From: Brachyspira alvinipulli ATCC 51933
GTDB taxonomy: Bacteria > Spirochaetota > Brachyspiria > Brachyspirales > Brachyspiraceae
Assembly: GCF_000518245.1 (NCBI RefSeq)
Contig: NZ_KI912404.1
Coordinates: 171,897-235,896 of the forward strand
Length of the DNA: 64,000 bases
Reading direction: 5' to 3'
The translations under genes and the position numbers were made by a program. Positions 43,495-48,638 of the stretch are shown here, piece by piece; within the stretch, counting starts at the first letter, position 1; each line of letters begins with the position of its first letter. The notes beneath the pieces are model-generated. The model had not been told where the DNA came from and did not search any database. It worked only from the letters and a program-made list of their open reading frames with translations.

Positions 43495-44112
43495 ATGGAC
43501 AATATAAATTTTGATATACAAAGCACTAAAGATAATTACTTCAAAAGTTCAGAAGAAGCATATATAAAACCTCCAAAGAAAATACCTTTCTTTTTAAAAC
43601 TTCCTATGTGGATAGCAAAAAAGAAAGTGAAAAAAGATTTACAGCTTCCAAAGATTTTGGCTTGGAATCCTAAAACTGCAATAAGTTCAGGTGTAATGGA
43701 GGCACTCATAATTCATGATGATAAAGAAGTACATAAAAGGCTATTGAAACTCATAAGGATACAAATTTCAATAGATGTTGCATGTCCGTTTTGTATAGAT
43801 ATGAATAGTTTTGAATATGATAAAGACAGTGTAACAGAAGAAGAAATAAAATATTTACAAAATAAGGATATAGATTTCTGCCCGACTATGTCAAATAAGG
43901 AAAAGATTGCTTTAAAATATATTTCAGCCATAACAAAAACGCCTGTAATAATATCCGAAGAATTAATCACAGAAGTAAAAAAAGAGTATTCAGAGCGTGC
44001 AATATTAATATTAGCTTCTACTGCGGCACAGGTTAATTATTGGGCAAGGCTTATAAGGTCTTTGGGAGTTCCTACTGCAGGGTTTACAAATATATGTAAA
44101 ATTAATAAATAA
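43495..44112 (+). CDS. carboxymuconolactone decarboxylase (CMD)-family protein
   Basis: The 205-residue protein contains a CMD/AhpD-like core: LIRIQISIDVACPFCIDMNSFEY, with a C-x2-C pair, followed by helices with EKIALKYISAITKTP. In AhpD this Cys pair reduces peroxidase partners; here the role is unknown. It is in front of, but separately promoted from, the DUF262 pair. Confidence 0.8.
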   Translation: MDNINFDIQSTKDNYFKSSEEAYIKPPKKIPFFLKLPMWIAKKKVKKDLQLPKILAWNPKTAISSGVMEALIIHDDKEVHKRLLKLIRIQISIDVACPFCIDMNSFEYDKDSVTEEEIKYLQNKDIDFCPTMSNKEKIALKYISAITKTPVIISEELITEVKKEYSERAILILASTAAQVNYWARLIRSLGVPTAGFTNICKINK

Positions 44113-44124
44113 AGCATAAAAATA

Positions 44125-44153
44125 TTGACTGCAAATTAGAAATTTACTATACT
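44125..44153 (+). promoter_or_regulatory. promoter of the DUF262 gene pair
   Basis: TTGACT (44125-44130) and TATACT (44148-44153) are separated by 17 bases. It begins 13 bp after the CMD gene stop, so the DUF262 pair is an independent unit. Confidence 0.75.
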
Positions 44154-44181
44154 TAACATATTATATCAAAGGTTTTTATAT

Positions 44182-46101
44182 ATGAGTAATGTAGAGCAAA
44201 TTTATATATTAGGAAATGAAAAAAATAAGTATTATTTAAAAAATTATTCCTTTTATATTCCAAACTATCAAAGAGGATATAAATGGAGTAAAAAGAACAT
44301 AGAAGATTTACTTAATGATATTAATTCTATAGGTAAAGATAATAAAAAAGATTATTGTCTGCATAATTTAACTATCATAGAAATTAATAAAGAACATTCT
44401 TTGTATAATTTAACAGTTGAAAACGAAGATAAAAATGAAAATAAATATGAAGTAGTTGACGGACAGCAAAGACTTACAACAATATACCTGCTTTTGAAAT
44501 ATTTAGGTTCCGAAGAAATATATAATTTAGATTATCAAATAAGAGAAGAAACAAAACATTTCATTAATAATAAGCTAGAAACAATTATTAATGATATATC
44601 TAATTATGATAGTTGTATAGCTATTTTTAATAGTGTAAAAGATACGGAAATAGATATAAAAAAAGAAGATGATGCAATTGAAAAAAGCTCATATAATAAA
44701 CAGGATATTTACTTTATTTGCGATGCCTTATTTTGTATGCATCAATGGTTTACAGATAATACAGATAATGAAATATATGATAATCTTCAAAATGTATATT
44801 TCTATAAGCATGAATTAACAGGTATTAAAGGTGAAACTGTATTTGCCAACTTAAACAGCGGAAGAGTGCCTCTCACAGATATAGAATTAATAAAAGCTGA
44901 TTTGATAATAAATATAAGTGAAGAAAAAAATAAATCATTAAAAAATGACATACTTTTAAATGAAATAAGAAGCAATATAGGAAGATTATGGGACGAAATG
45001 GAAAGTTTTTTAGCTCAAGATGAAGTATGGTATTGGATAGCTGCAAATAATAAAATTGCAAATAAATTATCTTTATTATTTGATTTAATAAATATAAAAA
45101 CTTTTAGCGACTATAAAAAATGTATTAAAGAAAATAATAAAACAAGTAATGATATACTAAATAAAATAAAAGATTATTATTACACTATAAAAGATTGGTA
45201 TTATGATAATGACATGTATCATTTGGTTGGTATTGCTGTAAATATAGGCTTATCAATTAATAGATTATTTGAAATAATAGTAGACAGCAAAGATAAATTA
45301 AAAAATAAAAAGGAATTGAAAAATGAAATCATTCAGTCAATTATCGAAGAATTAAAAATATATGATACTGATTCTATTAAAATAAAAGAAACTCAATACG
45401 AAAAATTAAGTTACCAAAATAATAGTAAAGATATAGAAAAAATAATGCTTTTATTAAATTGTTTGGAAGGTTATAATTTTAATAATAAAACATTCAATAA
45501 AGGATTCAGATACAGATTCGATTTGCATAATAAAGAACAGTGGTCTATAGAGCATATATTCCCTCAAAATGCTACAAAAGAAAATTATAAATCATATATT
45601 TTAGATTTAATATGTTTGTTTGAAGAAAATAAAGAAGAAAATAAAGAAGAATTAAAAAATATTTGTGGTATATTAGGTATTGTCAATAATAATAATGAAA
45701 ATATAGAGGAACTAAAAAATTTAATTATAGAAAAACTTAAAAAAACTATTGATGAAAAAAAAGAGAATGATGATGAAAAAGAATACATTGATATTAATAA
45801 AATTAATGAAATTAATAAAATTAGTAATAATATAGTATTTGATATACAAAAAATAGGCAATTTAGCTTTACTTTCAAAAAATATAAACTCATCTTTGCAA
45901 AATTATATTTTTGAAGAAAAGAGAACTATATTGCTAAAAAAAATATCTGAAGAAAATATTTTTGTTCCGCCTTTAACTTTAAAAATATTCTCTAAAAATT
46001 TTGACGGATCAGAGAGAACAAAAGCATATTGGACTCCTAATGATTTTGAGGCATATCTTGAATATCAAAAAAATAAATTAGAACAATTATTAGATTTATA
46101 A
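44182..46101 (+). CDS. DUF262-DUF1524 protein, GmrSD-type restriction nuclease-like
   Basis: The 639-residue protein has the DUF262 motifs of the ParB/Srx-like NTPase domain: PNYQRGYKW (about residues 27-35), VVDGQQRLTTIY and FANLNSGRVPLTDIELIKADL. The C-terminal part has a DUF1524 His-Me nuclease motif (WSIEHIFPQN) and the trailing IGNLALLSKNINSSL with FEEKR. This order matches single-chain GmrSD-like type IV restriction enzymes that attack modified phage DNA. It is Lys/Asn/Glu-rich and contains a 12-bp in-frame repeat. AAAGG lies upstream. Target specificity is unknown. Confidence 0.88.
   Translation: MSNVEQIYILGNEKNKYYLKNYSFYIPNYQRGYKWSKKNIEDLLNDINSIGKDNKKDYCLHNLTIIEINKEHSLYNLTVENEDKNENKYEVVDGQQRLTTIYLLLKYLGSEEIYNLDYQIREETKHFINNKLETIINDISNYDSCIAIFNSVKDTEIDIKKEDDAIEKSSYNKQDIYFICDALFCMHQWFTDNTDNEIYDNLQNVYFYKHELTGIKGETVFANLNSGRVPLTDIELIKADLIINISEEKNKSLKNDILLNEIRSNIGRLWDEMESFLAQDEVWYWIAANNKIANKLSLLFDLINIKTFSDYKKCIKENNKTSNDILNKIKDYYYTIKDWYYDNDMYHLVGIAVNIGLSINRLFEIIVDSKDKLKNKKELKNEIIQSIIEELKIYDTDSIKIKETQYEKLSYQNNSKDIEKIMLLLNCLEGYNFNNKTFNKGFRYRFDLHNKEQWSIEHIFPQNATKENYKSYILDLICLFEENKEENKEELKNICGILGIVNNNNENIEELKNLIIEKLKKTIDEKKENDDEKEYIDINKINEINKISNNIVFDIQKIGNLALLSKNINSSLQNYIFEEKRTILLKKISEENIFVPPLTLKIFSKNFDGSERTKAYWTPNDFEAYLEYQKNKLEQLLDL
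45622..45645 (+). repeat. 12-bp in-frame tandem repeat in the first DUF262 gene
   Basis: GAAGAAAATAAA occurs twice in tandem and encodes EENK twice, followed by a partial third unit. Changing copy number by one unit would add or remove four residues without a frameshift. Confidence 0.85.
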
Positions 46102-46120
46102 AAATAAGTAAGGACAAAAA

Positions 46121-48380
46121 ATGAAATTAAGCGAATTATTAAAAAATGAATTAATAATACCAGAAATACAAAGAGATTATGTTTGGGGCAATAATGAAAT
46201 AGTATTGAGAAGGTTTTTAAAAAATATATTTAATAATATTATTAATGAAAGAAAATAAAAAAGTATTAGATATAGGATTTTTTTACGCATATAAAGTTTA
46301 TCAAAATGAAAAAATATATGCTCTTATAGACGGACAGCAGAGAATAACTACATTAGTATTACTTTATTGGTATTTAGGTATAGGTAAAGATTATATAAAA
46401 AAGTTTAAATTCAAAGTAAGAGAAAACTGCAATAATTTTTTAGAAAAACTACTTGAAGAAAATATATCAAATATAGAAGCAATAAATGGAGGAAGCATAT
46501 CTGAAAAAATAAAAAACTGTATATGGTACTTAAGTATATGGGATAATGACCCTACAGTAAAATCAATGCTTAAAGCTCTTGATATTATAGAGAATGAATT
46601 TAATAAAATTACAGAAAATAAAGAATATATAAAAAATAATATAGAAAATAAGATTATTTTTACATGTATTACTAATGATGACAGAGGACTTGAAAAAGAA
46701 TATATATTATTAAATGACAGAGGAGTAGTACTTGAGGAATCAGAAAAATTGAAAGCTATATTAGTTGAAAATATGAAAAATGAAAATGAAAAATATAAAT
46801 ATCTTAAAAAATGGGAAAAGGATTGGCAGGATATTTTATGGGAATGTAAAGGAGATAATGTTTATAATACAGATAATATTTGGAATGCTGTTTTATACTG
46901 GGCTAGAGATATTTTTGTAATAGAAAACAATATTTACAAAGAAAAGGATAATAATATAAATAAAAAAAATGATGATAATAAGAAAATAAATTTTGATTTT
47001 GATTTAATGAATATCAAAGGAAAGAATGATAAAGGAGAGAATTATAAAGATATATTATTAAAAATATTTGATTGGATTATTCCAGCATTAAAAATAATTA
47101 ATAAAAATGAAAATAAGGATTTATTTCAAAAAAAATGTCAATTTGATTATGAAAATAAAGTCATTGATATAGATACAATAATTGCAGGAGGTGAGAAAGA
47201 AAGTTATAAATTGGGTAATGGACAAAGAGCTTTATTTTACGGATTATTATATTTAGTAAAAAGTAAATATAATATAGAAAATGTTGAAAGTATTAATAGT
47301 ATTGAAGATAAATACTTAAAAATAAATGAAAATGATGAAATTTTAGAAAAAACAAGAGTATTTAGAAATTTAATACAAAATTCTGATATTAATTCTAATA
47401 ATTTACAAAATGTATTAGAATCATTAAAAGTATTGTCTAACTTTGGCAAAACAATATCTGATTTTCCTAACGAATTATTAAACAACAATAAAGAAATTAC
47501 TTATATAAATAATGAACAAAGATACGAAGAAGCTTTGAAACTAGAGATTTTCAAACTAGAGATTTTCAAACAATATCCTAAACATAAAGATACTATATTG
47601 AAAATTGAAAATGACGTTTTATTTAAAGGAAGAATTAAAAATATATTTTTGCTAGCATATTCAGAAAATTCAGAAAATAATAAAAAGTTTATTAATAATT
47701 ACAACCTTCAAACAAAATTTTTTAAAGAAATATTTTTTGATAAAAAAGAGGATAAATTAAAATTAAAAGGAAATATAATTTGTGAAACAAAATTAAACTT
47801 ATTTGATAATTTACTAAAACAGTATAGAGAAATATATGATATAAAAAATCAAATATGGGGTGAACTTTTATTAGATGAAAATATATATATTTATGATGAA
47901 CATATGCATATGGTAAAACTTGAAGTACAAGAAGATTGCGGATTTTTATATTTGGTATATCTATATCATATATATTATATAAATAATAAAAGTAATGAAA
48001 CACTTACTATAGATAATTTCTTGCATGATAATAGAAAAAATAATTTAGATGCTATGATTGGAGAATTAAAAGACATAAATAAAATAAAAGATATTGAATC
48101 TCCAATAAAACAATTATATATAATATATTTATTATATGATATGAAGAAAGAATGTCTTTTTCAAAGATACACTAAACATTTTGGTGTACTAGAAGGTAGC
48201 GAAGGGTATTACGCTATTCCAGAAGATAAAAAAGGAGAAAAAGATAAGTCTCCATTTAATAACAAATTTCTTTTCCAAACTTATAATATATGTTGGAATG
48301 TTAGAGGGGCACAGCCTTATATTAAATTTTACGATGAATTTATAAATGATGAATATTTATTAGAATTAATAAATATATAA
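46121..48380 (+). pseudogene. second DUF262-domain protein, interrupted by a frameshift
   Basis: The gene starts at ATG 46121 and reads MKLSELLKNELIIPEIQRDYVWG, the usual DUF262 opening. That frame stops at 46256-46258. The remaining 711 residues continue in another frame from about 46245, with LIDGQQRITTLVLLYWYLG and YILLNDRGVVLEESEKLKAIL. Removing one base near 46211-46262, where A and T runs are frequent, would give about 753 residues. No HNH nuclease motif is visible; the C-terminal 350 residues are unfamiliar. It may be a disabled gene, a phase-variable one or a sequencing error. It starts 19 bp after the first DUF262 gene. Confidence 0.8.
47538..47567 (+). repeat. 15-bp in-frame tandem repeat in the second DUF262 gene
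   Basis: AAACTAGAGATTTTC occurs twice in tandem and encodes KLEIF twice. It is another in-frame length-variable site. Confidence 0.85.
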
Positions 48381-48386
48381 ATAACA

Positions 48387-48638
48387 ATGAACATAGAAGT
48401 TAAAGTAACAGCGGGAGCTAAATCCAACAGTTTTAAATTCGAGAATGGGGCCTATTCCATTCGTATTATGGCTAAGGCTATAGACGGTAAAGCTAATAAG
48501 GCTATAATTGATTTTTTGGCTGATGAACTTAATATCAAAAAAAGAGATGTTGAAATATTAAAGGGCGAGAAAAGCAGCAAAAAACTTATTTCTATTAATA
48601 TAGATGAGAAAAATCTTCAAAAATATTTTAATAAATAG
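48387..48638 (+). CDS. DUF167 (YggU) family protein
   Basis: The 83-residue protein has the DUF167 pattern: VKVTAGAKSNSF, YSIRIMAKAIDGKANKAIIDFLADEL and VEILKGEKSSKKLISI. The molecular role of this widespread family is unknown. It begins 6 bp after the second DUF262 gene, so it may be carried on that transcript although it is a housekeeping-type gene. Confidence 0.92.
   Translation: MNIEVKVTAGAKSNSFKFENGAYSIRIMAKAIDGKANKAIIDFLADELNIKKRDVEILKGEKSSKKLISINIDEKNLQKYFNK

What the first reader, a model, noticed from the sequence alone, without database searches (positions are those of the whole stretch)
44182..48380. Two-gene DUF262 islet: GmrSD-like nuclease plus a nuclease-free DUF262 partner
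Seen: the first protein has DUF262 motifs and a DUF1524 HIFPQ nuclease motif; the second has DUF262 motifs but no nuclease motif and a long unfamiliar C-terminal region. They share a promoter and sit between genes of ordinary type. Known: DUF262-DUF1524 proteins such as GmrSD restrict phages with modified DNA. Inference: the pair could be a two-component defence system in which the second protein senses or regulates.
Basis: partly seen in the sequence, partly recalled or inferred. Interest (0 to 1): 0.62.

Follow-up and report, generated by a model that had tools for sequence, protein, structure and literature searches.

The report
Broken GrwAB-like two-gene DNA restriction islet
This Brachyspira chromosome carries a two-gene anti-phage DNA-cutting module of a recently described kind (like GrwAB of Vibrio cholerae), with its second gene broken by a frameshift, in a chromosomal slot where related species carry a different two-gene module of the same class behind the same promoter.

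Summary
Gene A (44182-46101) is an intact DUF262 + His-Me (DUF1524) protein with every motif residue present. Gene B starts at 46121, not 46245. Its QR motif lies in a 45-codon stub, and the frame is lost at an A-rich, length-variable spot near 46225-46270. The remaining 711 codons are open. B is a DUF262 protein with a long non-nuclease C-terminus.

B is not a loner. In 50 of 50 loci found by B homology (12 plasmids from six phyla, 23 spirochaete loci, 15 viral contigs) an A gene lies directly upstream on the same strand. This architecture and order is that of GrwAB (Nat Microbiol 2025, PMC12137116), where both genes are needed against phages with modified DNA. So it is a new, probably inactive, member of a known kind. 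Identity with GrwAB by sequence could not be tested, because the GrwAB proteins are not held here.

Unreported, as far as I found: the AhpD|DUF167 slot holds A+B in two species, ~600 bp B remnants in five, nothing in six, and in five more the opposite-order pair (DUF262-DUF7834, then DUF262-DUF1524, TgvAB-like). That pair sits behind the same 69-bp promoter/leader (68/69 identical at best), although the coding sequences are unrelated beyond DUF262.

The parts
44125..44153 (+). Promoter of the islet (TTGACT-17 bp-TATACT), part of a 69-bp leader (44113-44181) shared with a different two-gene cargo in other species
   Evidence: leader 68/69 identical to L151 and 67/69 to L015
44168..44172 (+). 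Shine-Dalgarno-like AAAGG of gene A
   Evidence: sequence; conserved in all slot leaders
44182..46101 (+). Gene A: DUF262 + DUF1524 His-Me nuclease (GrwA-like), intact, 639 aa
44266..44286 (+). A: QR motif YQRGYKW
   Evidence: invariant YQRGY.W
44458..44472 (+). A: NTPase motif DGQQR (R97)
   Evidence: invariant
44842..44856 (+). A: FxxxN motif (FANLN)
45550..45567 (+). A: nuclease motif EHIFPQ, catalytic H458
   Evidence: E457 and H458 invariant
45859..45888 (+). A: N560 ... N569 of the His-Me nuclease, 9 residues apart as in GrwA N521/N530
   Evidence: PMC12137116
46110..46114 (+). Shine-Dalgarno-like AAGGA of gene B
   Evidence: sequence
46121..46258 (+). Gene B 5' part (45-codon stub after the frameshift) with QR motif IPEIQRDYVWG at 46157-46189
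   Evidence: in frame with the rest in L015 and L022
46225..46270 (+). A-rich, length-variable segment in which the reading frame of B is lost
   Evidence: alignment with two intact orthologues
46245..48380 (+). Gene B main part (711 codons): rest of DUF262 (DGQQR 46329-46343, YILLN 46701-46715) and long non-nuclease C-terminal region
43495..44112 (+). Left flank of the cargo slot: conserved gene, described here as AhpD-like from recall only (no Pfam match)
48387..48638 (+). Right flank of the cargo slot: DUF167/YggU gene

Best explanation
The islet is a GrwAB-type two-gene modification-dependent (type IV, GmrSD-related) restriction module. Gene A is the nuclease subunit: its DUF262 domain binds and hydrolyses NTP and gates a C-terminal His-Me nuclease. 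Gene B is the obligate partner: a second DUF262 NTPase domain with a long, separate C-terminal region that probably joins A in a complex and contributes target recognition or licensing. When phage DNA with modified bases enters, the complex cuts it. In this genome the module is probably off, because B has lost its frame at an A-rich spot and the piece made from 46245 would lack the QR motif. Shown here: domains, motifs, frameshift, invariable pairing, gene order, slot. Shown by others for the same architecture: need for both genes, for both DUF262 arginines and for the nuclease residues, and dependence on DNA modification. Inferred: that this lineage acts the same way, complex formation, and B's role.
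For: A motifs all invariant with the family. B family aligns over its whole length, with invariant DGQQR and a conserved [FY]xxxN equivalent. 50/50 B loci have A directly upstream, same strand, overlapping or a short gap apart. Conversely, every strong A hit in the genus has B downstream, apart from one cut off by a contig end. Full-length profile scores from models built without the slot members. The GrwAB architecture and gene order are the same, and mutations of R81 (A), R86 (B), H431, N521 and N530 abolish defence. Window A has the same N-N spacing of 9. Intact orthologous pair at the same slot in a second species (L015/L023) and on a short contig in a third (L022). Pairs also on plasmids and in viral contigs, as defence cargo usually is.
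Against: GrwA and GrwB sequences themselves are not in the collections I could search, so homology to them was not measured. The residue positions of GrwA/GrwB fall inside the ranges seen in this family, but no retrieved pair matches all of them. PADLOC and NCBIfam have no full-length model for B. B is broken in this genome. No phage or nuclease data exist for any spirochaete copy that I found. The predicted structure of B is poor beyond residue 480, and the model of A returned no fold match.
Confidence: 0.8

Rival explanations
1. A is an ordinary single-protein GmrSD/BrxU-type type IV enzyme that works alone, and B is an accessory or separate neighbour.
For: Single-chain GmrSD, BrxU and HEC-06 act alone (PMC4437046, PMC8565348, PMC11411939). 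A alone has both domains intact here.
Against: B never occurs without A and strong A hits never occur without B where the contig allows a check. GrwA alone gave no protection (PMC12137116). Solo GmrSD-like proteins in viral contigs score only about 33-115 bits on the A model, against about 270-690 for intact paired A proteins.
Confidence: 0.12
2. A is an SspE/DndI-type effector that depends on phosphorothioate modification of host DNA.
For: The A profile matches SspE (E 6e-19) and DndI 9jfl (E 1e-16, profile positions 10-513) among solved structures. The B model's best fold matches are DndI and SspE.
Against: No DndC homologue anywhere in this genome. No modification genes annotated beside the plasmid pairs looked at. 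The sequence match is strongest in DUF262, which is common to all these enzymes.
Confidence: 0.04
3. The frameshift in B is a sequencing or assembly error and the module is intact and active here.
For: The break is in an A-rich tract; the remaining 711 codons are fully open; window-L022 dN/dS for B is 0.46, no worse than A's 0.55.
Against: Many other family loci have a split A or B (L016, L019, L021, L040, L075, L079, L085) and five species keep only B remnants at this very slot, so real decay is common.
Confidence: 0.25

Closest known systems
GrwAB (Vibrio cholerae WASA lineage, VSP-II; PMC12137116)
   Same: Two adjacent genes; DUF262-DUF1524 gene first; second gene with N-terminal DUF262 and a long region of unknown domains; QR, DGQQR, [F/Y]xxxN motifs; His-Me residues H, N, N with the two N nine residues apart.
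   Different: B is frameshifted in the window; different phylum; target range unknown; no direct sequence comparison was possible.
TgvAB (V. cholerae VPI-2; PMC11411939)
   Same: Two-gene GmrSD-like system, both proteins with DUF262, one with DUF1524.
   Different: Reverse gene order (nuclease-free gene first). The Brachyspira pairs with that order have a different, shorter partner (DUF262 + DUF7834, ~500 aa) and score at most 95 bits on the A model. That kind occupies the same slot in five other species.
GmrSD / Eco94GmrSD / BrxU / HEC-06
   Same: Gene A has their domain layout.
   Different: Those work as a single protein (or the split GmrS + GmrD); here A is always followed by B.
SspE and DndI (phosphorothioation-sensing; 6jiv, 7drs, 9jfl)
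   Same: DUF262 + DUF1524 layout; nearest solved structures by sequence (A) and fold (B).
   Different: Depend on Dnd/Ssp modification genes, of which DndC is absent here.

Membership tests
GrwAB | Two adjacent co-oriented genes, nuclease gene first | tested here: met
   44182-46101 then 46121-48380; 50/50 relatives the same
GrwAB | First protein: DUF262 with QR, DGQQR, FxxxN plus DUF1524 with H, N, N | tested here: met
   R97, F221/N225, H458, N560, N569; PF07510 slightly below cut-off in the window, above it in orthologue L015
GrwAB | Second protein: N-terminal DUF262 (QR, DGQQR, FxxxN) plus long region of unknown domains, unlike TgvA | tested here: met
   Orthologues L015, L022; in the window only across the frameshift; no DUF7834
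GrwAB | Second protein intact in this genome | tested here: not met
   Frame lost near 46225-46270
GrwAB | Sequence homology to V. cholerae A1552 GrwA/GrwB | not testable with these tools
   Sequences not held; residue-position check inconclusive
GrwAB | Both genes required; restriction of phages with modified DNA | not testable with these tools
   Needs phage assays
TgvAB | Nuclease-free DUF262 gene first, DUF262-DUF1524 gene second | tested here: not met
   Order is reversed in the window
Single-chain GmrSD/BrxU | One protein sufficient, no obligate partner gene | tested here: not met
   By co-occurrence only: A and B inseparable; sufficiency itself not testable
SspE/DndI | Phosphorothioation genes in the genome | tested here: not met
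   No match to DndC TIGR03183; other Dnd/Ssp genes not searched

The most novel reading that the evidence does not exclude
The AhpD|DUF167 site is a promoter-anchored exchange slot. The cargo behind a fixed 69-bp promoter/leader is swapped between two kinds of two-gene GmrSD-like restriction module with opposite gene order (GrwAB-like and TgvAB-like), by recombination between the conserved leader and flanking genes and without an integrase, so each species keeps one module, a remnant, or nothing.
Probability: 0.55. Interest if true: 0.5.

Novelty: new member of a known kind. Interest (0 to 1): 0.36.

Why it matters
Two-gene GmrSD-like enzymes (TgvAB, GrwAB) were described in 2024-2025 from one pathogen, and why they need a second DUF262 protein is open. 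This work indicates that the nuclease-first kind is an inseparable pair across six bacterial phyla, plasmids and viral contigs, and supplies alignments with invariant residues of B (e.g. DPT, N-x-RG, and R/N, E/K and G positions of the C-terminal part) to mutate. The Brachyspira slot, where two rival module types replace one another behind one promoter, is a natural comparison of which module serves which phage pressure.

Tried and rejected
Single-query scan of genome contigs with B found only one relative, because the sequence diverges fast; the profile and genus/phylum searches replaced it. Phage records (INPHARED) hold no B relative. Centring a genome search on Vibrio to obtain GrwAB itself was not possible. 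Matching the published GrwAB residue numbers against retrieved pairs identified no exact GrwAB. Foldseek with the A model gave nothing usable; with the B model only DndI/SspE at low TM-score (0.19-0.29), attributable to DUF262. The idea that B is a degenerate GmrSD with a decayed nuclease was dropped: the A and B profiles align only over the N-terminal ~235 columns. The idea that the small B-remnant ORFs (residues ~203-397) in other species are domesticated genes was dropped: two of five carry internal stops and they look like deletion scars. Programmed frameshifting in B was considered; the intact orthologues need none, and the in-frame stop precedes the AAAAAAG tract.

Full report
WHAT IS THERE. 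The window lies in a Brachyspira genome (G000; the only named relative retrieved, L015, is 'uncultured Brachyspira'). Gene A at 44182-46101 encodes 639 aa with GmrSD_N (E 9e-31) and a sub-threshold GmrSD_C. Its alignment with 16 relatives shows YQRGYxW, DGQQR (R97), FxxxN (F221/N225), EH (H458), N560 and N569 to be invariant or nearly so, and all present. Gene B begins at 46121 behind an AAGGA site. It carries IPEIQRDYVWG in its first 45 codons, meets a stop at 46256, and continues in another frame as the 711-codon ORF 46245-48380. In two orthologues the two parts are in one frame (L015, L022). The alignment places the break in an A-rich stretch whose length also differs between the orthologues. 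Intact copies of B therefore exist; this one is broken, or misread. dN/dS between window and L022 is 0.55 for A and 0.46 for B, so B shows no sign of long decay.

PAIRING. B was searched for without requiring A. On plasmids, 17 records gave 12 distinct loci in Bacillota, Bacteroidota, Spirochaetota, Pseudomonadota, Campylobacterota and Actinomycetota. Each has a DUF262 gene of the A family directly upstream, overlapping or a short gap apart. In 247 Spirochaetota genomes the full-length B matches (roughly E < 1e-40) separate from DUF262-only matches (E above 1e-16), and all 23 loci examined, the window included, have A directly upstream. In IMG/VR, 15 of 15 contigs with B have A upstream; two of these are near-duplicates by their scores (L098, L100). 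Conversely, all strong A matches in 26 Brachyspira genomes are followed by B, except one at a contig end; in G015 B is partly masked by N but recognisable at both ends. Profiles built without the slot's own sequences give window A E 4e-92 and window B E 2e-57, nearly full length. The A and B profiles are similar to each other only over the DUF262 region, about 235 columns, so the C-terminal two thirds of B is its own family. It has no Pfam, NCBIfam or full-length PADLOC model.

WHAT IT WORKS LIKE. GrwAB of V. cholerae has the same gene order and domain layout. Both genes, the DGQQR arginines of both, and H431/N521/N530 of GrwA are needed for defence against phages with 7-deazaguanine or sugar-modified hydroxymethylcytosine DNA, and escapers map to the modification enzyme (PMC12137116). 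Window A has the same nine-residue N-N spacing. The most likely mechanism is therefore modification-dependent restriction by an A-B complex gated by NTP hydrolysis. What B adds (recognition, licensing, resistance to anti-restriction proteins) is unknown there and here. TgvAB is the sister two-gene system with reversed order (PMC11411939). Phosphorothioate-dependent action (SspE, DndI) is disfavoured: DndC is absent from this genome, although SspE and DndI are the nearest solved structures.

THE SLOT. The flanking genes (43495-44112, called AhpD-like here from recall; DUF167, 48387-48638) were located in 26 Brachyspira genomes. Between them lie: the A+B islet (G000, G024); ~600 bp with a remnant of B residues ~203-397 (G006, G020, G021, G022, G023); 11-157 bp (G003, G004, G009, G014, G015, G017); or ~3.6 kb with another two-gene module (G005, G007, G008, G018, G025), broken in some. 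That other module is DUF262 + DUF7834 (~500 aa) followed by DUF262 + DUF1524 (~690 aa), the TgvAB order. The 69-bp leader from the left gene's stop to the start codon, with a TTGACT-17-TATACT promoter, is shared by both modules: window vs L151 68/69, L152 63/69, L153 57/71, L154 58/69, L155 58/71. The left gene's last 500 bp are 87-91% identical in the same comparisons, and the first 300 bp of coding sequence align at 41-51%, which is not clearly above what unrelated AT-rich sequence would give (no shuffled control was run). The searched leader pattern was not found at A+B loci elsewhere in the fetched sequences. One short site (G004, L160) keeps the start of the leader and the last ~45 bp of a TgvB-like gene, a deletion scar. 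Replacement of one two-gene module by another behind a conserved promoter is the simplest reading. Order of events and mechanism are inferred.

STRUCTURE. AlphaFold2 with 14 sequences gave B (orthologue L015) mean pLDDT 61, with residues 483-679 unreliable; Foldseek found DndI and SspE (E 4e-5 to 1e-3, TM 0.19-0.29). The A model (pLDDT 76, pTM 0.58) returned no significant match, so structure adds little.

VERDICT. But this is a further, broken member of a kind already described (GrwAB-like); membership by sequence is untested for want of the reference. The slot with alternating modules is the part worth following.

Noticed in passing
43495-48638 and loci L151-L155: Same chromosomal slot in five other Brachyspira species holds a TgvAB-order pair (DUF262-DUF7834, then DUF262-DUF1524) behind the same promoter/leader.
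   Followed up: partly
L024, L025, L026, L027, L028: Five species keep only a ~600-bp remnant of B (residues ~203-397) at the slot; three of the five remnants are still open reading frames.
   Followed up: partly
L017 4690-9194 (G000:C7): The same genome carries a second, intact A+B pair (636 and 869 codon frames) elsewhere, so the strain may keep an active module of this kind.
   Followed up: partly
L086-L100: At least 15 viral contigs of IMG/VR carry complete or partial A+B pairs, suggesting phages or prophages carry the module.
   Followed up: no
L101, L125: Viral contigs with the reverse order (DUF262-only gene of 436-456 codons, then DUF262-DUF1524-like gene), resembling TgvAB.
   Followed up: no
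L023 (G024:C78:4964-5086), L024 (G006:C1:2859740-2859850), L157 (G003:C1:1494193-1494288): Short second copies of the first 32-41 codons of the left flanking gene lie just upstream of it in three genomes: small duplications at the slot's left edge.
   Followed up: no
L032 6111-7961: In Entomospira culicis plasmid p28 a third, convergent DUF262 gene lies beside the A+B pair.
   Followed up: no
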